From Elusimicrobiota bacterium (GTDB lineage: Bacteria > Elusimicrobiota > Elusimicrobia > UBA1565 > UBA9628): a DNA stretch of 64,000 nucleotides. The first letter of the stretch is position 1; each line of letters begins with the position of its first letter. The notes below the pieces were generated by a model. The model was not told where the DNA came from, did not search any database, and saw nothing but the letters and a program-made list of their open reading frames with translations. The position numbers and the translations under genes are program-made. The DNA is taken from contig JACPFR010000028.1 in assembly GCA_016182905.1 (NCBI GenBank), positions 1 to 64,000 on the forward strand, read 5' to 3'. This document shows, piece by piece, positions 15,779-27,283 of this stretch.

Positions 15779-15834
15779 GGCGCAAGCCTTGGCGCGAGTT
15801 TGGCGCAAGTTTTGGCGCAAGTTGGCGCAAGTTT
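15779..15834. repeat. Short tandem repeats (about 11 bp) between the fic and SWIM genes
   Basis: About five near-identical copies of TTGGCGCAAG in a row, with small spacing changes and one GCGAG variant. They end at the stop codon of the Fic gene and form its 3' untranslated region. Confidence 0.8.
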
Positions 15835-16879
15835 AGGCCGCCCACTTGCCGGGCCGATAGCGGAGTTTATTGGTGGCCCCTTCGGGAATCAGCAGGCCTT
15901 TGTCCACCATGCCCTTTAGTTCCCGCTGGAGAGTCCGCCGCGGAGCATCCTTGAAGAGTCCGATGAAGTCCTTGAGAGTCAGGCCCTCGTGCTCGACCGC
16001 GCGCCTCAAGGCCGTTCGTTGCCTGTCGTTTAGGGCATGCTTTCGCGCGAGGAGGTCGAGCCGAATCACCTTCTCGCCCCGCTCCTGGACTTCCCGCATC
16101 TGAGTCGCCAAGCCGTCCGTGAAAAACTCCAGCCAGTTCGTCAGGTCCATGCCCCGCTCGCGCACGCCCTGGATAGCCTTGTAGAAGGCGATCCGGTCCC
16201 GGTCATAGTATTCACTGATCGTGAACAGGCGCTTGAAGTCGTAGCCCTTGCGGTAGAGGCAGAGGGTCGATAGAAGCCGGGAGGTCCGGCCGTTGCCGTC
16301 GTCAAAGGGATGGATATGAACAAGCTGGAACTGAGCGACGCCCGCTTCGAGAACCGGGTTGACGCCGTGCTCCGTCCGCAGCCAGCCGACCAAATCCGCC
16401 ATCATCCCGGGAACCTCGGCTGGAGGCGGCGGCGTGTAGATCACCTGCTTGGTCTTCGAATTGACCACGAAGTTCTGGCCTTTGCGGTACTGTCCGGGCG
16501 ACGCCTTGTCGCCGCGTACGCCTTTGACCAGCCGTTTGTGAATCTCGCGAAGCAGCGCCTCCCTGATGGGCTCCCCGTTGTCCAAGTATTCGGTTACCAG
16601 ATCGAAAGCGTCGCGGTAATTCAGGAGCTCCCGCGTATCGTCAGGATCAGCGCCGGGAACCTTTTTACCGGCAAGAAGCTTCTCCGACTCCTCGAGGGTC
16701 AGGTGCGTCCCCTCGATGTGAGTCGTGTGATGCGCTTCCAAGAGGAGCGCACGGTTCTGCATTTCGGAGATCCAGTCCTCCGAGAGCTTGGCCGCATCCA
16801 GAAATCCGCGCGCCCGCTCGATCCGAGTCAGGGCGGCCGTGACGGCGTTGGTGATCGTGAACTTCGGCAAAAAAGGCAT
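15833..16879 (-). CDS. Fic family protein (AMP-transferase type) with C-terminal winged helix
   Basis: 348-residue Fic/DOC protein. The catalytic loop [14 protein letters not shown] (about residue 190) matches HxFx(D/E)GNGRxxR, so it is predicted to transfer AMP to a target hydroxyl. The N-terminal TTHIEG fits the inhibitory helix pattern (S/T)xxxE(G/N), placing it in the self-inhibited class II. A C-terminal winged-helix region (residues about 275-345, [25 protein letters not shown]) suggests DNA binding or autoregulation. Neighbours do not identify a target. It is followed by the SWIM gene and preceded by the terminator of tRNA-Gln. Confidence 0.93.
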
Positions 16880-17032: not shown

Positions 17033-17338
17033 TTATAGCACTGACCGGGCCGACGCGCCAGACCGGGCGGCCCTGACGGCCTCGGCGGCGAGCCAGGCGG
17101 TCCAGACGGCGAGGACGGGTATCCCGAGCGGGTGGAGGTGGAAGGACCCGAGCCAGTCGCCCCGCATCGCGGCCACGACCGCGCGGCCCATGCCGCAGCC
17201 CGGGCACATATGTCCGGTCGCCAGGCGGAACGGACATATCACGAGGCTCCCCCCCGCGCCCGTGACCGCCTGCGCCGCGCAGAGGAGCCACGCGGCGCCG
17301 GCGACGACGGAGAACGGGACGGGATGACGGATCTTCAT
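17033..17338 (-). CDS. DUF2752 membrane protein
   Basis: 101-residue protein with the DUF2752 signature CPFRLATGHMCPGCGMGRAV in its middle, flanked by a hydrophobic N-terminal helix (FSVVAGAAWLLCAAQAV) and a C-terminal one (HPLGIPVLAVWTAWLAAEAV). DUF2752 proteins are small inner-membrane proteins of unknown function with conserved Cys pairs. Its ATG overlaps the stop of the DUF4234 gene by 4 nt, so the pair is translationally coupled. Its stop overlaps the -10 element of the tRNA-Gln promoter. Confidence 0.85.
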   Translation of the reverse strand: MKIRHPVPFSVVAGAAWLLCAAQAVTGAGGSLVICPFRLATGHMCPGCGMGRAVVAAMRGDWLGSFHLHPLGIPVLAVWTAWLAAEAVRAARSGASARSVL

Positions 17339-17700
17339 GAGAGCTTGTTGATCTCGTGCTGGTAGACGGCGTCGGTGATGACGGTCAGGCCGAGACAGGC
17401 GAGCACGAGGCCGATGACGGGCAGGTTCGGGTTCGGGTCCCGGCCGTTCTCCTTGAGCCAGCCGTACAGTTCGGCGCCCATCTTGTACTCGTAGTAGATG
17501 TGGAACAGGCCGCAGGTGATGATGGAGAGGAGCAGCCACGGGACGAACTTGAACTCCTCGCGCCCGAGCAGCGCGTTCATCGCCAGGAACTGACGGTAGT
17601 TCCAGTAGATGTTGTAGATCCCGCAGGTGATGATGGACAGGACGATGCCCATCGCGATCTCGATGTGATGCTCGGACGACAGCGGCTTGTCGGTGGTCAT
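17335..17700 (-). CDS. DUF4234 membrane protein
   Basis: 121-residue protein with three hydrophobic segments and two copies of the characteristic LSIITCG(I/L)-x-x-I-Y motif (LSIITCGIYNIYWNYRQ and LSIITCGLFHIYYEY), the hallmark of DUF4234. The third helix (LPVIGLVLACLGLTVITDAVY) is near the C-terminus. The function is unknown; members often accompany DUF2752 or TM2-type proteins, as here. CATACT ends 6 nt before the ATG, predicting a leaderless transcript. Confidence 0.87.
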   Translation of the reverse strand: MTTDKPLSSEHHIEIAMGIVLSIITCGIYNIYWNYRQFLAMNALLGREEFKFVPWLLLSIITCGLFHIYYEYKMGAELYGWLKENGRDPNPNLPVIGLVLACLGLTVITDAVYQHEINKLS

Positions 17701-17742: not shown

Positions 17743-19674
17743 TCAGCGGGCGGCGGGGACGGCGACGATCGCGGACCAGGCGGCGCGCGCGGTGTCGGCG
17801 AAGTGGAAGAGGGACAGGTCGCCGGAGGAGATGAGGCCCATGCGGGCGAACTCGTCGAAGTCCAAGATCTTGTCCCAGTACTCCTTCTCGCCGACCAGCA
17901 CGATCGGCACGCGCGGCATCTTGCCGGTCTGCATCAACGTGAGCACCTCGAAGAGCTCGTCCATCGTGCCGAAGCCGCCGGGGAAGTAGACGAGGCCCAT
18001 CGAGCCGTGGCGCAGGGCCATCTTGCGCGTGGAGAAGTTCGTGAACTCGAACTCGAGGCCGGGCGTCGCGTACTTGTTCAACCCCTGCTCGTGGTCGAGG
18101 ATGATGTTGTAGCCCACGCTCGGGCCCTTGGCCTCGAAGGCGCCGCGGTTGGCGGCCTCCATGATGCCGGGGCCGCCGCCGGAGACGACGGCGACCTCGC
18201 CGCCGCCCTCCTCGGCGACGAGGCGGCCGAACTGCCGGGCGATGTCGTAGTACTTGGACATCTCGACGGCCTGCACCGCGGCGTACACGAGCTTGCGCTC
18301 CTCGGGACGCTTGGGCTTGCGGCCGTACTTGTCGACGAGCTCCTGGAGGCGGGCGCGGGCGACGTCGGGCTGCAGGATGCGGGCGGAGCCGTACACGGTG
18401 ACGGTCGCGCGCACGCCGGCGGCGCGCAGGCGGCGGGCGGGCTCGGTCAGCTCGCGGACGATGACGTCCGGGTCCGGCATCGCGGCCAGGGCGAGGGCGT
18501 CGGGGACGAGGAAGCGGGCGGCGGGCTTGGCGAGGGGCAGGGCGGCCTTCGCGGCCGACTGGCGGCGCAGGCGAGAGCCCTCGACGTTGAACAGGCCGTC
18601 CTTGCCGCGGACGAAGACCCGGCGGTCCTTGCCCGCGTACACCGACACGCTGGCCAGGCCGATCGGGGCGCCGGTGCGGACGTAATCGTTGATGACGGAG
18701 CGCAGCTCGGCGACGGGCACGGCGTCGCGGGACTCCAGGTTGATCGCGGCGGCGCCGGGAGCCAGGCGGTGTCGCGCCGCGTGGGCGAGGACCTGCTCGT
18801 TAGCGTGAGCGAGCTGGACCTTGAACTCGCCGCCGGGGAACAGGCTCTTCATCTCGGTGACGACGCCTTCGACGATCAGGTCGGGGGTCTTGCCTTCCTC
18901 GCGGATGACGAGCTGCAGGTCCTTCGCGTGCAGCTGGATCTTGCGGATCAGCGCGGCCTCGTGCGCCTGGACCTCGGGCAGGTGCTCGGCGAGCTCGGGG
19001 CGGCCGGACAGGTCCACGGCGCGGAAGCTGTCGCCTTTCGAGTCGCGGTAGACGCGCAGGTCGAGATGGCCGATCTTGTCCCACTTCGACGCGAGCTCGT
19101 TGATGAAGTGCTCGGTGTTCGGAGTGTGCGGGATGACGCCGCTCGCCTCGCGGGCGCTGTTGAGGCGGACGACGGAGACGCTCTTCGCGCCGAGGGGGAG
19201 CGGGAGGGAGGCCGGCTCGGCGTTCTCGAGGGCGGCCTTCGCGGCGGCGCCGTCGAAGGCGGCGGCCGCGGCGCCCGCCTCGGACAGGCCGACGAGGCGG
19301 CCGAGGTCCTTGAGGCTCGTGCCCGCGTTGCGGAGGCGTCCGCCGTCTTTGGCGGGCGCCGAGACGGGGTGCGACAGCGCGGCGGGAACGAACGCGGCGG
19401 CCGCGGGGATCGCCGAGGCGGCGAGGGCGGGGATCGGCGCGAGCGCCGCGGGAGCGAGGGCCGGGACGAGAGACGGGGCGATCGACGGCGCCGCGAGGCC
19501 GGGGGCCGACGGCAGAGACAGGGCGGGGCCCGAGAACGAGGGCGCCAGGCCGGGCGAGAGGACGGGAGAGAAGGACGGAACGACGGAGACCGAGCCGGGG
19601 ACGGCGGCGTGGACCTGCGCGGCGGCGGGAACGGCGGAACCGAAGGCCAGCAGCGCCGACAGCAGCAATCTCAT
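17743..19674 (-). CDS. Exported LOG-family protein with PD-(D/E)XK nuclease-like domain
   Basis: From the ATG with GGAG 6 nt upstream the product starts MRLLLSALLAFGSAVPAAAQ, a signal peptide. An Ala/Pro/Ser-rich spacer (to about residue 110) follows. Residues about 190-320 contain TPDLIVEGVVTEMKS (about 262-276) in the context of an alpha/beta region, resembling the restriction-endonuclease-like toxin domain of CdiA C-termini (PD...E-x-K). Residues about 420-640 form a LOG/lysine-decarboxylase-like Rossmann domain with SGGGPGIMEAANRGA and PGGFGTMDELFE, the nucleotide 5'-monophosphate phosphoribohydrolase motifs. LOG enzymes normally act in the cytoplasm, so export plus a nuclease-like module is unusual. 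A start 2 codons upstream is also possible. A stem-loop AGGAGG-CTAT-CCTCCT precedes the ribosome-binding site. Confidence 0.82.
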   Translation of the reverse strand: MRLLLSALLAFGSAVPAAAQVHAAVPGSVSVVPSFSPVLSPGLAPSFSGPALSLPSAPGLAAPSIAPSLVPALAPAALAPIPALAASAIPAAAAFVPAALSHPVSAPAKDGGRLRNAGTSLKDLGRLVGLSEAGAAAAAFDGAAAKAALENAEPASLPLPLGAKSVSVVRLNSAREASGVIPHTPNTEHFINELASKWDKIGHLDLRVYRDSKGDSFRAVDLSGRPELAEHLPEVQAHEAALIRKIQLHAKDLQLVIREEGKTPDLIVEGVVTEMKSLFPGGEFKVQLAHANEQVLAHAARHRLAPGAAAINLESRDAVPVAELRSVINDYVRTGAPIGLASVSVYAGKDRRVFVRGKDGLFNVEGSRLRRQSAAKAALPLAKPAARFLVPDALALAAMPDPDVIVRELTEPARRLRAAGVRATVTVYGSARILQPDVARARLQELVDKYGRKPKRPEERKLVYAAVQAVEMSKYYDIARQFGRLVAEEGGGEVAVVSGGGPGIMEAANRGAFEAKGPSVGYNIILDHEQGLNKYATPGLEFEFTNFSTRKMALRHGSMGLVYFPGGFGTMDELFEVLTLMQTGKMPRVPIVLVGEKEYWDKILDFDEFARMGLISSGDLSLFHFADTARAAWSAIVAVPAAR

Positions 19675-19762
19675 GGGCATCTCCAGGAGGATAGCCTCCT
19701 ATGTAAGGAAGCGCTTGGGCCCTCGGGCCCCTCTTTTCCCGGCAAAAGTCCTAGGCGCGTCC

Positions 19763-20674: not shown

Positions 20675-20763
20675 GGAAGCCGCGTCCTCGCGCGCGTAGA
20701 CGCTCCTCCCGGCAATTTGTTACCATATCGCCGTCGCAACCCCATTCCCGACGGAGGATAACG

Positions 20764-21924
20764 ATGGCTTTTTTCATCGGACGCGACCGTGAAGCCCGCA
20801 GGGCCTACGGATTCGACGAGATCGCGCTGGTTCCCGGCGACATGACGGTCAACCCCGACGAGGTCGACACGACCCTGCAGATCGGGCACGTCAAGCTCGA
20901 GATCCCCTTCCTCGCCTCGGCGATGGACGGCGTCGTGGACGCGGAGTTCGCGATCGCGATGGGCAAGCTCGGCGGCCTCGGGGTCCTGAACCTCGACGGG
21001 ATCAGCACGCGCTACGACAAGCCCCGCGAGGTCGTCTCCCAGATCGCCGGCGCCACCCCCGACGAGGCGACCCGCCTCGTGCAGGAGATGTACCGCCCCG
21101 CCGTCAAGGAGGAGCTGATCGGCGAGCGCATCAAGCAGATCAAGAAGGCCGGCGTGCCCTGCGCGATCTCCACGATCCCGCAGAACGCGGAGAAGTACGG
21201 CCGCATCGCGATGGAGGCCGGCGCCGACATCTTCGTCGTGCAGTCCACCGTCACGACCGTCCGCCACAAAGCGACCAAGTACACGCCCTTCGACATCGCC
21301 AAGTTCTGCAAGGCGATGAAGATCCCCGTCGTCGTCGGCAACTGCGTGACCTACTCGGTCGCCACCGAGCTGATGGACGCGGGCGTCTCCGGCCTGCTGA
21401 TCGGCGTCGGACCGGGAGCCGCCTGCACCACGCGCGGCGTCCTCGGCCTCGGCGTGCCGCAGGTGACGGGCACGGTCGACTGCGCCGCGGCGCGCGACTT
21501 CCACTTCAAGCGCACCGGCAAGTACGTGCCGATCATCACCGACGGCGGCATGTCCACCGGCGGCGACATCTGCAAGGCGATCGCCTGCGGCTCCGACGGC
21601 GTCATGGTCGGCTCCGCCTTCGCGCGCGCGAAGGAAGCGCCCGGCCAGGGCTTCCACTGGGGCATGGCCACGCCGCACGCCAACCTGCCCCGCGGCACCC
21701 GCATCCAGGTCGGCATCACCGGCAGCCTCGAGGAGATCCTCTACGGGCCGTCCCGCCTCGACGACGGCTCGCAGAACCTCGTCGGCGCCCTGCGCACGTG
21801 CATGGGCTCCGTCGGAGCCTCGACGATGCGCGAGATGCAGACCACCGAGATCATCATCGCTCCCTCGATCAAGACGGAAGGCAAGATCTTCCAGAAGGCC
21901 CAGCGCATCGGGATGGGGAAGTAG
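20764..21924 (+). CDS. guaB3: GuaB3-type IMP dehydrogenase
   Basis: 386-residue IMP dehydrogenase-family TIM barrel without CBS domains, the hallmark of the GuaB3 branch. The catalytic loop GPGAACTTRGVLGLGVPQ carries the Cys-Thr-Thr-Arg of true IMP dehydrogenases, followed by IITDGGMSTGGDICKA and MVGSAFARA (phosphate loops). The start at ATG 20764 has GGAGGATAAC just upstream. It oxidises IMP to XMP with NAD+, feeding GuaA encoded 1 nt downstream. GuaB3 was long annotated as of unclear function; the operon position supports a role in GMP synthesis. It heads the guaB3-guaA-purC-purS-purL-purQ operon. Confidence 0.92.
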   Translation: MAFFIGRDREARRAYGFDEIALVPGDMTVNPDEVDTTLQIGHVKLEIPFLASAMDGVVDAEFAIAMGKLGGLGVLNLDGISTRYDKPREVVSQIAGATPDEATRLVQEMYRPAVKEELIGERIKQIKKAGVPCAISTIPQNAEKYGRIAMEAGADIFVVQSTVTTVRHKATKYTPFDIAKFCKAMKIPVVVGNCVTYSVATELMDAGVSGLLIGVGPGAACTTRGVLGLGVPQVTGTVDCAAARDFHFKRTGKYVPIITDGGMSTGGDICKAIACGSDGVMVGSAFARAKEAPGQGFHWGMATPHANLPRGTRIQVGITGSLEEILYGPSRLDDGSQNLVGALRTCMGSVGASTMREMQTTEIIIAPSIKTEGKIFQKAQRIGMGK

Positions 21925-21925
21925 C

Positions 21926-23482
21926 ATGACCGTCGCCGCTCTCGAAGCCGAGAAGATCCTGATCCTCGACTTCGGGAGCCAGTACACCCAGCTGATCGCG
22001 CGGCGCCTGCGCGAACTCGAGGTGTACTGCGAGATACTGCCCTTCAAGGCGACGCGGGAGCAGATCCTCGCGGCGAGGCCGGCCGGCATCATCCTGTCCG
22101 GCGGGCCGGCGTCGGTCCACGAGAAGGGCTCGCCGCGCCCGGACAAGTTCGTGTTCGAGGCGGGCGTGCCGGTGCTCGGCATCTGCTACGGCATGCAGCT
22201 GCTCGTCGAGCTGCACGGCGGCAAGGTCCTGCCCTCGAAGAAGCGCGAGTACGGCCACGCCGACCTCGAGATCGTCGCCGAGAGCCCGCTGTTCGCCGAC
22301 CTGCCCCGGCATCTGCAGGTGTGGATGAGCCACGGCGACAGCGCCTCGCGCCTGCACAACGGCTTCCGCGTGGACGCGCGCACCGGCTCGGCGCCCTACG
22401 CCGCGATCTCCGACGAGGCGAAGCGCCAGTACGGCATCCAGTTCCACCCGGAAGTGGTGCACACGCCGCTCGGCGCGAAGGTCCTCGAGAACTTCGCGCG
22501 CCGCATCTGCCGCTTCGAGAAGCGCTGGAGCATGTCGTCCTTGCTCGAGTCCCAGGTCGCGGCGATTAAGACGCAGGTCGGCGACGGCAAGGTCGTCTGC
22601 GCCCTCTCCGGCGGCGTGGACTCCTCCGTCGCGGCGGCCCTGATCTCCAAGACGATCGGCTCGCGCCTCTACTGCATCTACGTGGACACCGGGCTCGGCC
22701 GCCACGGCGACCGCGAGCGCGCGGAGAAGGTGCTCGGCCAGGAGCTGAAGCTCAATCTAAAGGTCGTGGACGCGTCGAAGCTCTTCCTCGGACGGCTGAA
22801 GGGCGTTTCGAACCCGGAAAAGAAGCGGAAGATCATCGGGAAGACGTTTATCGAAGTGTTCGATAAAGAAGCGAAACGGATCAAAGGGGTGACCTTCCTG
22901 GCCCAGGGAACGTTATACCCGGACGTGATCGAATCCGTGTCGGTGCACGGGCCCTCCGTCGTCATCAAGAGCCACCATAACGTCGGCGGGCTCCCGAAAA
23001 AAATGAAGCTGCGCCTGGTCGAGCCGCTGCGGATGCTCTTCAAGGACGAGGTGCGCCTCCTCGGCAAGGAGATGGGGATCTCGCAGGACCTGCTCGGCGC
23101 CCACCCGTTCCCCGGCCCCGGCCTCGCGATCCGCGTGCTCGGCGCCGTGACCCCCGAGCTGCTCAAGACCTTGCGCGACGCCGACCTGATCATGCGCCAG
23201 GAGCTCAAGGCCGCCGGCTGGTACGACAAGGTCTGGCAGGCGTTCGTGGTGATCCTCCCCTCCGTGCGCTCCGTCGGCGTGATGGGCGACGGGCGCACCT
23301 ACGAGAACACGGTCGTCGTCCGCTCGGTGGACAGCCGCGACGGCATGACCGCCGACTGGTCGCGGCTCCCGTACGACCTCATGCAGAAGATCTCCAGCCG
23401 CATCGTCAGCGAGGTCAAGGGCGTGAACCGCGTCGCTTACGACATCTCCTCCAAGCCTCCCGCCACCATCGAATGGGAATGA
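21926..23482 (+). CDS. guaA: GMP synthase (glutamine-hydrolysing)
   Basis: 518 residues, full length for bacterial GuaA. The N-terminal class I glutamine amidotransferase has the nucleophile in GICYGMQLL (Cys at about residue 88) and FHPEV. The ATP-pyrophosphatase domain has the P-loop ALSGGVDSSVAA (about residue 228). The C-terminal dimerisation domain ends ATIEWE, typical of the family. It converts XMP to GMP with ATP and glutamine. The coding sequence loses G+C from about 22740, partly recovers, and the low-G+C character returns in purC. The purC start overlaps its stop. Confidence 0.97.
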   Translation: MTVAALEAEKILILDFGSQYTQLIARRLRELEVYCEILPFKATREQILAARPAGIILSGGPASVHEKGSPRPDKFVFEAGVPVLGICYGMQLLVELHGGKVLPSKKREYGHADLEIVAESPLFADLPRHLQVWMSHGDSASRLHNGFRVDARTGSAPYAAISDEAKRQYGIQFHPEVVHTPLGAKVLENFARRICRFEKRWSMSSLLESQVAAIKTQVGDGKVVCALSGGVDSSVAAALISKTIGSRLYCIYVDTGLGRHGDRERAEKVLGQELKLNLKVVDASKLFLGRLKGVSNPEKKRKIIGKTFIEVFDKEAKRIKGVTFLAQGTLYPDVIESVSVHGPSVVIKSHHNVGGLPKKMKLRLVEPLRMLFKDEVRLLGKEMGISQDLLGAHPFPGPGLAIRVLGAVTPELLKTLRDADLIMRQELKAAGWYDKVWQAFVVILPSVRSVGVMGDGRTYENTVVVRSVDSRDGMTADWSRLPYDLMQKISSRIVSEVKGVNRVAYDISSKPPATIEWE

Positions 23483-24366
23483 TGACGAGCACCGCCTCCT
23501 CCGTCGACATACCGGGACTGAAGCTCCTGCGCCGGGGCAAGGTCCGGGACGTCTACGACCTCGGAGAGAAGCTGCTCATCGTGGCGTCGGACCGGCTCTC
23601 GGCGTTCGACGTGGTCCTGCCGACGCCGATCCCGGACAAAGGCAAGATCCTGACCACGGCGGCGCTGTTCTGGTTCGATCTGACGAAAAACGTGGTTCCG
23701 AACCATTTGATCACCGCTGATTTCGACGCCATTCAACAGCAACTGCCCGTGAAGCTGGATAAGAACTGGTTCGACGGGCGGATGATGCTGGTGCATAAGG
23801 CGAAAAGGATCGATGCCGAGTGCGTGGCGCGCGCGTATCTCGCGGGGTCGGGCTGGAAGGAATATAAAATCAACGGCAACGTCGTTGGTCACTCGCTTCC
23901 GGCGGGGCTCAAAGAGGCCGACAAATTGCCTTCGCCCATTTTTACGCCCGCGACGAAGGCGGATGAGGGGCACGACGAGAACATCTCGCGAGAACGCTTG
24001 GCTGAGATGATAGGACCGGAACTTGCCAAGACGTTGGAAGGATTAACCCTTCGGGTTTTTAACGTCGCGGCCGAGCACTTGGCGAAGAGAGACCTCATTC
24101 TTGCCGATACGAAATTCGAATTCGGGTTCATCAACGAAAAACTTTGTCTTATCGACGAGATCCTCACGCCCGACTCGTCCCGCGTGTGGGAGAAGAAGGA
24201 TTGGCATCCCGGAAGGACTCCGGACGGCTTCGACAAGCAATTCGTGCGTGATTATCTCGAGAAATCCGGCTGGAATAAGCTTCCCCCCGCCCCCGCTTTG
24301 CCTCAAAGCGTCGTGGACGGCACGCTCTCCCGCTATCGCGATTTCCTCGCAAAGGTGACCAAGTGA
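23479..24366 (+). CDS. purC: SAICAR synthetase
   Basis: 295 residues from the ATG that overlaps the guaA stop by 4 nt (ATGs 2 codons upstream and 1 codon downstream are also possible). Motifs include KLLRRGKVRDVYDL, VASDRLSAFDVVLPTPIPDKG, the ECVARAYLAGSGWKEY block and LCLIDEILTPDSSRVW, typical of the longer PurC class similar to yeast Ade1. It joins CAIR and aspartate using ATP. The gene has distinctly lower G+C and different codon use from its neighbours, suggesting replacement by horizontal transfer or gene conversion. Confidence 0.95.
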   Translation: MMTSTASSVDIPGLKLLRRGKVRDVYDLGEKLLIVASDRLSAFDVVLPTPIPDKGKILTTAALFWFDLTKNVVPNHLITADFDAIQQQLPVKLDKNWFDGRMMLVHKAKRIDAECVARAYLAGSGWKEYKINGNVVGHSLPAGLKEADKLPSPIFTPATKADEGHDENISRERLAEMIGPELAKTLEGLTLRVFNVAAEHLAKRDLILADTKFEFGFINEKLCLIDEILTPDSSRVWEKKDWHPGRTPDGFDKQFVRDYLEKSGWNKLPPAPALPQSVVDGTLSRYRDFLAKVTK

Positions 24367-24863
24367 GCATAAAGATCCAGGCGGAGAATGTTCACCTCAT
24401 CGAGGTCAAGCTCCGCAACGAGTTCAACGACGCCGAGGGCGCCGCGGCCTTCGCCCTCCTGCGGGAGCAGGGCCTGGGCGCCCTCAAGGAAGTCCGGGCC
24501 GGCCGGCTCTACGAGATCTCCGGCTCGCTGACCGCCAACCAGGCGCACCAGGCCGCGAAGGACCTCCTCTGCGACGCCGTGACCCAGGAGTTCCGCCTGG
24601 TCCCCGTCGCGCCCGCGCCGATGAACGGGATGAACTTCTGGCGCGTCGAGGTCTGGCTCAAGCCGACCGTCTCCGATCCCGTCGGCGCGACGGTCGCCGA
24701 GGCGATCGCCGAGGGCGGCCTTCAGCGCCCGACCTCCGCCCGCTGCGGGATGCTTTATCTGCTCAACGGCCGCGCCGTGAAGGCGCAGGTCGAGAAGGCC
24801 GTGGCCAAGTCGCTGGCCAATCCTCTCATCCACCGCGTCGTCGTCACCGAGGCCCACCCTTGA
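24363..24863 (+). CDS. purS: PurS, duplicated: two PurS units in one protein
   Basis: GTG start overlapping the purC stop (GTGA). PurS is normally about 80 residues; this one is 166. Two successive PurS-like folds are visible: residues 8-78 (VHLIEVKLRNEFNDAEG... to TQEFRL) and 90-161 (FWRVEVWLKPTVSDPVG... to LIHRVVV). The second copy keeps the canonical KPTVSDPVG opening and the first is more diverged. PurS dimers bridge PurL and PurQ in the FGAM synthase complex, so the fusion acts as a built-in dimer. PurL and PurQ are encoded immediately downstream. Confidence 0.88.
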   Translation: MSIKIQAENVHLIEVKLRNEFNDAEGAAAFALLREQGLGALKEVRAGRLYEISGSLTANQAHQAAKDLLCDAVTQEFRLVPVAPAPMNGMNFWRVEVWLKPTVSDPVGATVAEAIAEGGLQRPTSARCGMLYLLNGRAVKAQVEKAVAKSLANPLIHRVVVTEAHP

Positions 24864-27283
24864 GCCAGCTCGCCGAGACCTCCCAAGACTCGTTCCCCAT
24901 CCTCGGCAAGTCGCCCAAGGAGCTGCGCGTCATCGGCAACTCGCGCCACCTCTCCCTGTCCGACGCCGAGTGGGGCGCGATCCAGGCCCACTTCAAGACC
25001 CTCAAGCGCGAGCCGTCCCTCGCCGAGATCGAGACCATCGCCCAGACCTGGTCCGAGCACTGCAAGCACAAGACCTTCACTTCTCCCATCAGGTATGTCG
25101 AAGGGAAGAAGACGCGGACGATCAAGAACCTCTTCGCCGAGACCATCGTCGCCGCCACCGAGGCCGTCAAGAAGCCCTGGTGCCTGTCCCTGTTCAAGGA
25201 CAACGCGGGCGTCGTCGCGTTCGGCAAGAAGTGGGCGCTGGCGTTCAAGGTGGAGACGCACAATCATCCCTCGGCCCTCGAGCCCTACGGCGGCGCGGCC
25301 ACCGGCGTCGGCGGCGTGGTGCGCGACATCCTGGGCGTCGGCCTCGGCGCCAAGCCCGTCCTCAACACCGACACCTTCTGCTTCGGCCGCCCGGACTACA
25401 AGGGCGCGCTCCCCGAAGGCGCGCATCACCCGACGCGCACCTTGCGCGGCGTGGTCGCCGGCGTGCGCGACTACGGCAACCGCATGGGCATCCCCACGGC
25501 CGGCGGCGGGATCTGGTTCGACGACGACTACCGCCTCAACCCGCTCGTGTTCTGCGGCACCGTCGGCATCATGCCCCAGTGGGCCGTCAAGAAAGAGGTC
25601 AAGCCCGGCGACCTGATCGTCGCGGTCGGCGGCCGCACGGGACGCGACGGCCTCCACGGCGCGACGTTCTCCTCGGCCAACCTCGGCGCGGACGCCCCCT
25701 CTTCCGCGGTGCAGATCGGCCACGCGATCCAGGAGAAGCGCGTCCTCGACGCCCTGCTCGCGGCGCGCGACAAGAAGCTCTACGGCTCGGTCACCGACTG
25801 CGGCGCGGGCGGCTTCTCCTCGGCCATCGGCGAGCTCGGCGCGGACTGCGGCGCGCGCGTGCGCCTCGAGCAGGCCCCGCTGAAAGTCAGCGACCTCGAC
25901 AGCTGGGAGATCTGGCTGTCCGAGTCGCAGGAGCGCATGGTCCTGGCCGTCAATCCCAAGAGCCTCAAGGCGCTCGAGGCCGTGTTCGCCGCCGAGGGTT
26001 GCGAACTCGCCGTCCTGGGCGAGTTCACCCGGACCGGCAAGCTCGAGGTCACGCACCACGAGCGGACGATCGTCGAGCTCGACATGAAGTTCCTCCACAA
26101 GGGCCTGCCGCGCGTGGAGCGCGAGGCCGTCTGGACGAATAACCACGCCGCGAAGCCCGCTGGCGGCGTCGCGAAGAAAGCCGGCGACGCCCTGCGCGAG
26201 ATGATCGGCCATCTCAACGTCTGCTCGCGCGAGTGGGTGATCCGCCAGTACGACCACGAGGTCCAGGGCGGCACCGTCGTCAAGCCGCTGCAGGGCGTGC
26301 GCCACGACGGCCCCGGCGACGCCTGCGTGATCTGGCCGCACGCCGCCACCGGCGACATGGACGACTTCTCCTGCTTCGCCGTCGGCCACGGCCTCAACCC
26401 CGACTACGGCCGGATCGATCCGTATTGGATGGCCCTGGCCGCGGTCGACGAGGCCCTGCGCAACCTGACCTGCGTCGGCGCCGACCCGTCCCGCGCCGCC
26501 TTGCTCGACAACTTCTGCTGGGCCAGCCCCGAGGACCCGAAGCAGCTCGGCGCGCTCGTCCGCGCCGCCGAGGGCTGCCGCGACGCGGCCAAGGGCTTCT
26601 CCGCCCCCTTCATCTCCGGCAAGGACTCGATGTTCAACCAGTCCAAGGACGAGAAGGGCAAGGAGCTCCCGATCCCCGGGACCTTGCTGGTCTCGGCGGT
26701 GGCCCCGGTCCCCGACGGGCGCAAGGCCGTCACCATGGACTTCAAGGGCCCGGGCAACGCCCTCTACCTCATCGGCCGCACCAACGACGAGCTCGGCGGC
26801 TCCCTTTATCACCGCGTCTTGGGACGCGTCGGGGGAGAAGTCCCCAAGGTCAACCCCGCCTCCGCCATCGACGGCTTCAAGGCGCTGCACGCGGCGATGA
26901 CCCGCGGCCACGTCCTGTCCGCGCACGACCTCTCCGAGGGCGGCCTGGCGCTGTGCGCCGCGGAGATGGGATTCACCGGCGAGTTCGGCTGCCTGCTCGA
27001 CCTCGACGAGTGCCCGCGCGACCCGCGCATCTATTCCAACGAGACCTTGCTCTTCTCGGAGTCCCCTTCCCGGATACTCGTCGAGGTGAAGCCCGAGGAC
27101 GAGTCGGCCTTCCTGCGCCACTTCGGCAAGAGCGCCAAGTCCGCGATGGTGCGCCGCGTCGGCCAGACCACGGCCAACCCGATCATCAAGGTGACGGGCC
27201 TCGAGGGCTCGACGTGCCTCGAGGAATCCCTCAAAGAGCTCAAGGAAGCGTGGCAGACCGCCCTGCCGAGGATCCTCGGATGA
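24860..27283 (+). CDS. purL: FGAM synthase, large subunit (small-type PurL)
   Basis: 807 residues starting at TTG, overlapping the purS stop by 4 nt. It belongs to the short PurL type that needs PurS and PurQ. Motifs: VETHNHPSALEPYGGAATG (ATP/FGAR site), GGRTGRDGLHGATFSS, FISGKDSMFNQ and SAHDLSEGGLALCAAEM. It converts FGAR to FGAM with ATP and ammonia delivered by PurQ. It is slightly longer than typical small PurL proteins, mainly through an insert around residues 425-480 (CSREWVIRQYDHEVQGGTVV and following). purQ follows with a 4-nt overlap. Confidence 0.96.
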   Translation: MSQLAETSQDSFPILGKSPKELRVIGNSRHLSLSDAEWGAIQAHFKTLKREPSLAEIETIAQTWSEHCKHKTFTSPIRYVEGKKTRTIKNLFAETIVAATEAVKKPWCLSLFKDNAGVVAFGKKWALAFKVETHNHPSALEPYGGAATGVGGVVRDILGVGLGAKPVLNTDTFCFGRPDYKGALPEGAHHPTRTLRGVVAGVRDYGNRMGIPTAGGGIWFDDDYRLNPLVFCGTVGIMPQWAVKKEVKPGDLIVAVGGRTGRDGLHGATFSSANLGADAPSSAVQIGHAIQEKRVLDALLAARDKKLYGSVTDCGAGGFSSAIGELGADCGARVRLEQAPLKVSDLDSWEIWLSESQERMVLAVNPKSLKALEAVFAAEGCELAVLGEFTRTGKLEVTHHERTIVELDMKFLHKGLPRVEREAVWTNNHAAKPAGGVAKKAGDALREMIGHLNVCSREWVIRQYDHEVQGGTVVKPLQGVRHDGPGDACVIWPHAATGDMDDFSCFAVGHGLNPDYGRIDPYWMALAAVDEALRNLTCVGADPSRAALLDNFCWASPEDPKQLGALVRAAEGCRDAAKGFSAPFISGKDSMFNQSKDEKGKELPIPGTLLVSAVAPVPDGRKAVTMDFKGPGNALYLIGRTNDELGGSLYHRVLGRVGGEVPKVNPASAIDGFKALHAAMTRGHVLSAHDLSEGGLALCAAEMGFTGEFGCLLDLDECPRDPRIYSNETLLFSESPSRILVEVKPEDESAFLRHFGKSAKSAMVRRVGQTTANPIIKVTGLEGSTCLEESLKELKEAWQTALPRILG

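What the first reader, a model, noticed from the sequence alone, without database searches (positions are those of the whole stretch)
17743..19674. Exported LOG-family enzyme carrying a PD-(D/E)XK, CdiA-toxin-like module
The protein joins a signal peptide, an Ala/Pro spacer, a region with TPDLIVEG...TEMKS (nuclease-like) and a C-terminal LOG domain with both catalytic motifs. LOG enzymes act on nucleotide monophosphates in the cytoplasm, so an exported version with a nuclease-like part is unexpected. It could process extracellular nucleic acids and nucleotides or be a secreted effector. The nuclease assignment is by motif only.
Basis: partly seen in the sequence, partly recalled or inferred. 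Interest (0 to 1): 0.66.

Follow-up and report, generated by a model that had tools for sequence, protein, structure and literature searches.

The report
Exported nuclease fused to nucleotide-cleaving enzyme
In an uncultured Elusimicrobiota bacterium this gene encodes an exported protein that joins a nuclease domain of the CdiA-toxin type to an enzyme that splits nucleotides into base and sugar phosphate, and its gene neighbours suggest it recycles nucleic acids as food rather than acting as a toxin.

Summary
The gene (window 17743-19674/19680, minus strand) encodes a signal peptide, an Ala/Pro spacer, a restriction-endonuclease-like domain, a disordered linker and a type-II LOG domain. The middle region folds confidently (pLDDT 93); its best solved-structure match is the PD-(D/E)XK toxin CdiA-CT of B. 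pseudomallei (4g6v, Z 7.4). A profile comparison links it to Pfam CdiA_C (E 6e-7), and the TPD...E-x-K core is invariant in 30 homologues. The LOG domain has both catalytic residues.

The module occurs in 30 genomes, all in one order of Elusimicrobiota. Most copies are fused to LOG, one to a secreted-type RNase domain, and several stand alone. At least five of the LOG-less genomes carry a separate exported LOG. In one genus that LOG heads a four-gene cluster with purine nucleoside phosphorylase, pyrimidine nucleoside phosphorylase and uracil phosphoribosyltransferase. The fused gene usually lies divergent to guaB3-guaA-purC.

The best reading is an exported nucleic-acid/nucleotide scavenging enzyme built from a toxin-type nuclease fold, not an immunity-paired toxin. 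Nuclease activity, substrate and exact location are inferred. It is a new combination of known parts; no earlier description was found in the library searched.

The parts
17743..19680 (-). whole gene: exported PD-(D/E)XK-LOG fusion, 645 aa (643 aa if the start is 19674, which has GGAG six bases upstream)
19618..19680 (-). signal peptide, residues 1-21 (predicted cleavage AAA|Q)
   Evidence: heuristic n-region/h-region/AXA in nearly all complete homologues, absent in cytosolic LOG paralogues
19336..19617 (-). Ala/Pro/Ser/Leu-rich spacer, residues 22-115; similar leaders on other exported proteins of this genome
18583..19209 (-). restriction-endonuclease-like module, residues 158-366; catalytic candidates E241, D267, E276, K278, Q296
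   Evidence: AlphaFold2 pLDDT 93.4; VIA-align top 4g6v Z 7.4; invariant columns; profile-profile with CdiA_C proteins E 6.4e-7; numbering
18847..18882 (-). core motif D267-x8-E276-x-K278
   Evidence: invariant in 30 homologues
18481..18573 (-). disordered linker, about residues 370-400
   Evidence: pLDDT under 50 at model residues 212-242
17746..18480 (-). type-II LOG (phosphoribohydrolase) domain, residues 401-645; catalytic R552 and E575
17335..17700 (-). DUF4234 small membrane protein just downstream; beside 11 of 17 LOG-bearing genes and 0 of 6 LOG-less ones
   Evidence: PF14018 E 4.8e-19; synteny
20761..27283 (+). divergent purine biosynthesis genes guaB3, guaA, purC, purS-like, purL
   Evidence: NCBIfam matches; guaB/guaA near the module gene in 14 of 23 loci

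Best explanation
It is a Sec-exported, probably periplasmic or secreted, two-enzyme nucleic-acid scavenging protein. The N-terminal PD-(D/E)XK nuclease, related to CdiA-CT toxin nucleases, would cut RNA or DNA outside the cytoplasm. The C-terminal LOG domain would hydrolyse the resulting 5'-nucleotides to free base plus ribose 5-phosphate, which can then be taken up and salvaged. Shown by computation: the fold, the intact catalytic residues, the signal peptide, the fusion/fission with a separate exported LOG, and the salvage and purine gene context. Inferred: nuclease activity and substrate, location beyond the inner membrane, the order of the two steps, and uptake of products.
For: Restriction-endonuclease-like fold and homology to CdiA_C with an invariant catalytic core. 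LOG type-II fold and catalytic Arg/Glu in all 19 LOG-bearing members. Signal peptides on both the fused and the separate LOGs but not on the cytosolic LOG paralogue, which forms its own clade. Where the nuclease protein lacks LOG, a separate exported LOG is found in G192, G221, G223, G225 and G227. In genus g9 that LOG is the first gene of LOG-PNP-PyNP-Upp. The fused gene is divergent to guaB3-guaA-purC-purS-purL here, and the module gene is near guaB/guaA in 14 of 23 loci. One homologue carries a PF00545 ribonuclease domain in place of LOG (E 7.8e-13). A 5'-nucleotidase family (PF02872) and a purine/uracil permease (PF00860) are encoded in this genome. Published precedents: BP1253, a predicted exported type-II LOG that cleaves AMP, GMP and CMP (PMC6864091), and secreted nucleases proposed for nucleobase salvage (PMC11495043).
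Against: No enzyme activity is known. The nearest structural relative is a specific tRNase toxin, not a degradative nuclease. An endonuclease alone would not make mononucleotides, so a further nuclease is needed. LOG and the nuclease may act on unrelated substrates. Linkage to guaB3 is by position on opposite strands, not an operon, and may be inherited synteny without functional meaning. Ribose 5-phosphate uptake is uncertain. Only the module fold, not its substrate, is supported.
Confidence: 0.6

Rival explanations
1. A secreted antibacterial (or anti-eukaryotic) effector: a CdiA-CT-type nuclease toxin with a second toxic domain, LOG or RNase, that depletes nucleotides or RNA in the target, possibly with the membrane protein DUF4234 as immunity.
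For: Closest fold is a CDI tRNase toxin. The C-terminal partner varies (LOG, PF00545 RNase, none), as in polymorphic toxins. DUF4234 lies next to 11 of 17 LOG-bearing genes and none of 6 others. Two-TM immunity proteins exist (PMC3482391).
Against: Often one chromosomal locus beside housekeeping genes; no variable C-termini within the genus; sequence slowly diverging with all catalytic residues kept; no small gene conserved next to all members; no N-terminal delivery domain beyond a signal peptide. Exported LOG occurs in a salvage gene cluster.
Confidence: 0.2
2. A periplasmic barrier or defence enzyme that destroys incoming foreign DNA or RNA, with LOG removing released nucleotides or signal nucleotides.
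For: The PADLOC PsyrA model matches the LOG region weakly (E 0.003).
Against: No defence genes seen nearby, mostly vertical inheritance, salvage context; the PADLOC match most likely reflects only the shared Rossmann fold.
Confidence: 0.08
3. Two unrelated extracytoplasmic functions fused for co-export; the nuclease-like domain binds rather than cuts nucleic acid, or LOG makes a secreted base-type signal such as a cytokinin.
For: LOGs are cytokinin-activating enzymes in plants and some bacteria (PMC6864091); one partner can be absent without loss of the other.
Against: Metal-binding and lysine positions of the nuclease are invariant in 30 sequences, which is expected of a catalyst; the separate LOG sits in a salvage cluster.
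Confidence: 0.12

Closest known systems
PD-(D/E)XK CdiA-CT toxins (CdiA-CT Bp1026b, PDB 4g6v; Pfam CdiA_C PF18451)
   Same: Restriction-endonuclease-like fold and the E...PD...(D/E) pattern; here E241, D267, E276 are spaced 26 and 9 residues, in 4g6v E187, D214, D223 are spaced 27 and 9 (PMC9086364).
   Different: Central domain of a 643-645 aa exported enzyme, not the C-terminus of a CdiA filament; the Lys is in the E-x-K motif, whereas 4g6v lists K242 elsewhere; Pfam score below cut-off; no CdiI found.
Type-II LOG phosphoribohydrolases (TIGR00730; TT1465 1wek, C. glutamicum 5wq3, S. coelicolor 5zi9)
   Same: Fold and catalytic Arg/Glu; 31-36% identity in structural alignment.
   Different: Exported and fused to a nuclease; well below the NCBIfam cytokinin-enzyme cut-off (29.6 against 300 bits).
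B. pertussis BP1253 (BpLOG)
   Same: Type-II LOG predicted to be exported; cleaves AMP, GMP and CMP (PMC6864091).
   Different: No fused nuclease described in the passages read.
Secreted microbial ribonucleases (PF00545)
   Same: Alternative C-terminal partner of the same module in L026 (G183).
   Different: Different fold and not part of the window protein.

Membership tests
[quoted passage not shown]
   Model pLDDT 93.4 with helix 82-92, strands 98-101, 111-113, 116-123, helix 129-147, strand 152-158; VIA-align top row 4g6v and many REase-fold nucleases below it, though Z is under 8 and Foldseek alone gave nothing at E < 0.001
PD-(D/E)XK nuclease superfamily | catalytic PD...(D/E)xK residues | tested here: met
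   T-P-D, E, K invariant in 30 homologues; upstream Glu invariant in the LOG-bearing set
PD-(D/E)XK nuclease superfamily | metal-dependent nuclease activity | not testable with these tools
   needs an assay
Pfam CdiA_C (PF18451) | score over Pfam gathering cut-off 26.6 bits | tested here: not met
   11.9 bits in the full protein, 13.9 for the module; 13 of 30 members match at E up to 1, best E 0.0015
Pfam CdiA_C (PF18451) | homology by profile-profile comparison | tested here: met
   hhalign with an alignment of four CdiA_C-type proteins of the same phylum: prob 92, E 6.4e-7, aligning HE, TPD, ExK and Q
CDI systems | toxin at the C-terminus of a large two-partner-secretion CdiA protein | tested here: not met
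   643-645 aa protein with a central module
CDI systems | TPS domain / CdiB partner in the genome | tested here: inconclusive
   PF05860 not found, but the control genomes did not ring either
Polymorphic toxins | adjacent cognate immunity gene | tested here: inconclusive
   No gene conserved beside all members; DUF4234 beside 11 of 17 LOG-bearing genes only
LOG family, type II | TIGR00730 over cut-off and PGGxGTxxE plus catalytic Arg | tested here: met
   105.4 against 96.35 bits; motifs; fold
LOG family, cytokinin-specific equivalog NF058542 | score over cut-off 300 | tested here: not met
   29.6 bits
LOG family, type II | NMP phosphoribohydrolase activity | not testable with these tools
   needs an assay

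The most novel reading that the evidence does not exclude
A toxin-type PD-(D/E)XK nuclease has been domesticated in Elusimicrobiota as the first half of an exported nucleic-acid-to-nucleobase enzyme. It would define an extracytoplasmic salvage route in which nucleotides are cut by a LOG phosphoribohydrolase instead of by a 5'-nucleotidase plus nucleosidase.
Probability: 0.4. Interest if true: 0.72.

Novelty: new variant of a known kind. Interest (0 to 1): 0.58.

Why it matters
LOG enzymes are normally treated as cytoplasmic nucleotide or cytokinin enzymes, and CdiA-type nucleases as weapons. Finding the two exported together, as one chain or as two proteins, and finding the exported LOG heading a nucleoside-salvage gene cluster, gives a directly testable function for both and suggests how an uncultured phylum may feed on nucleic acids. 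It also warns that a CdiA_C-like hit on an exported protein need not mean an antibacterial toxin.

Tried and rejected
Foldseek alone gave no PDB match under E 0.001 for the module; the REase assignment rests on VIA-align re-ranking (Z 7.4, a middling value by the tool's own note), profile homology and motifs. hmmsearch of the module profile against PDB sequences found nothing. Outside the phylum: no plasmid match, none among about 50 genomes beyond the phylum reached by 'relatives', and four viral-contig matches of 36 residues; the two read are short unrelated proteins. The A1 profile could not be used for viral contigs. PHROGs gave nothing convincing. A PADLOC PsyrA match is most likely only Rossmann similarity. 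DUF4234 as immunity gene: considered, not supported as general because 12 of 23 loci lack it. Correlation of the purine permease with the module in the genus (8 of 14 against 0 of 5; two-sided Fisher p 0.045) was not used as evidence, because the permease carriers are mostly one clade. The sequence of the B. pseudomallei CdiA-CT was not fetched; it is named from the fold search only. Literature searches found no paper on this fusion, but the library lacks most subscription journals.

Full report
What is there. The window lies in contig C28 of a 3.98 Mb genome assembly; its nearest named relatives are Elusimicrobia metagenome-assembled genomes. The gene at 17743-19680 on the minus strand encodes 645 aa. 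The protein has a signal peptide ending AAA|Q, an Ala/Pro/Ser/Leu spacer to about residue 115, a middle domain at 158-366, a disordered linker at about 370-400 and a LOG domain to the end.

The middle domain. Pfam gives only a sub-threshold CdiA_C match (E 0.27 in the full protein; 13 of 30 homologues match, best E 0.0015). An alignment of 30 homologues has G-x-T-P-D, E-x-K, A-x-x-Q, H and G invariant, with the upstream Glu of H-E nearly so; it is fully invariant in the 19 LOG-bearing proteins. AlphaFold2 on this alignment gave pLDDT 93.4 and pTM 0.89. Foldseek alone found nothing significant. VIA-align on its candidates put CdiA-CT of B. pseudomallei (4g6v) first, Z 7.4 over 117 of 132 residues at 3.6 A and 19% identity, followed among others by restriction endonucleases and related nucleases (PaqCI, Can2, Cdn1, the 2vld repair endonuclease, the Y. 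pseudotuberculosis CdiA-CT, BglII). Unrelated acetyl-CoA carboxylase chains score Z 5-6 in the same list, so Z alone is not decisive. Independent support comes from the profile: in distant Elusimicrobiota (family f21) it finds small proteins at E 1e-5 to 7e-5. Two of these were scanned and are true CdiA_C members at E 3e-17, and profile-profile comparison aligns the catalytic motifs with E 6.4e-7. The spacing E241-D267-E276 (26, 9) resembles the published 4g6v active site E187-D214-D223 (27, 9) (PMC9086364); the lysine differs in place.

The LOG domain. TIGR00730 exceeds its cut-off. The closest solved structures are type-II LOGs and relatives (9us2, 1wek, 5wq3, 5zi9). The Arg of the RK motif (R552) and the Glu of PGGxGTxxE (E575) are kept in all 19 fused members. 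The genome has one further LOG (C6), which has no signal peptide. Such cytosolic LOGs from nine loci form one clade (100/99), apart from nearly all exported ones; L028 sits beside them on a long branch.

Distribution and architecture. Across 341 genomes of the phylum the module is found in 30 genomes, confined to one order (families f1, f2, f3), one copy each. Most copies are fused to LOG. L016, L020, L021, L029-L031 and L033 end at or shortly after the module, L022 and L023 have other C-termini, and L026 has a PF00545 ribonuclease domain (E 7.8e-13). Signal peptides are recognisable in nearly all complete members. Where LOG is missing from the module protein, a separate exported LOG exists in G192, G221, G223, G225 and G227; G230 has an exported, degenerate LOG-like protein; G233 and G191 show a single LOG match each, outside the module protein, that was not read further. 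This fusion/fission pattern is a functional link between the two enzymes.

Gene context. In 14 of 23 loci the module gene lies near guaB or guaA, transcribed in the opposite direction. In the window the row is guaB3, guaA, purC, purS-like, purL, part of a longer nucleotide biosynthesis cluster. In all four genus g9 genomes examined (G221, G223, G224, G225) the separate exported LOG is followed on the same strand by purine nucleoside phosphorylase, pyrimidine nucleoside phosphorylase and uracil phosphoribosyltransferase. Family assignment by model: the first two of these in G223 and the first in G224, the last in G223 and G225; the others by sequence likeness. G224 has the exported LOG without a detected module. 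This is the strongest context evidence, and it points to salvage of nucleic-acid parts. A DUF4234 membrane protein follows 11 of 17 LOG-bearing genes and none of 6 LOG-less ones; its role is unknown.

Mechanism. The best-supported model is an exported scavenger: the nuclease opens RNA or DNA, and LOG turns 5'-nucleotides into base and ribose 5-phosphate. PD-(D/E)XK enzymes generally leave 5'-phosphates (established knowledge), which fits LOG's need for 5'-monophosphates, but an endonuclease would need help to make mononucleotides. BP1253 of B. pertussis is a precedent for a predicted exported type-II LOG acting on AMP, GMP and CMP (PMC6864091). The toxin reading is weaker: polymorphic toxins are typically marked by a linked immunity gene (PMC3482391), none is conserved across the family here, and the locus is often stable. 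It is not excluded, and DUF4234 could in principle act as a membrane immunity protein.

Novelty. Each part is known; the exported nuclease-LOG pair, its alternative RNase partner and the exported LOG in a salvage cluster were not found described in the papers searched. I rate it a new variant of a known kind.

Noticed in passing
G000 C4:40950, C21:23502, C44:104426 (L036, L040, L039): Other proteins of this genome carry a signal peptide and a similar Ala/Pro/Ser/Leu spacer before an enzyme-like domain (by eye: a haem-peroxidase-like protein in L036 and a phospholipase-D-like one in L040), suggesting a lineage habit for exported proteins.
   Followed up: partly
L092, L093, L094, L095 (G223, G225, G221, G224): Exported LOG heads a conserved same-strand cluster LOG - purine nucleoside phosphorylase - pyrimidine nucleoside phosphorylase - uracil phosphoribosyltransferase.
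   Followed up: yes
L026:1051-2760: Same PD-(D/E)XK module fused to a PF00545 secreted-type ribonuclease domain (E 7.8e-13).
   Followed up: partly
L125:2171-3499 (G230): Exported protein with signal peptide and Ala/Pro spacer followed by a degenerate LOG-like domain and a second partial repeat of it.
   Followed up: partly
L108-L111 (G301, G312, G296, G318): Small CdiA_C (PF18451) proteins standing alone without an obvious signal peptide in another Elusimicrobiota family; the function of such orphan toxin-type domains is unclear.
   Followed up: partly
window 20761-53594: Large nucleotide biosynthesis cluster (guaB3, guaA, purC, purS, purL tested; purF, purK, pyrB, pyrC, pyrD, pyrF, pyrE, carA, carB by eye only).
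   Followed up: partly
window 15833-16879: Fic-family protein a few genes downstream, shared among the loci compared only with the close relative L004.
   Followed up: no
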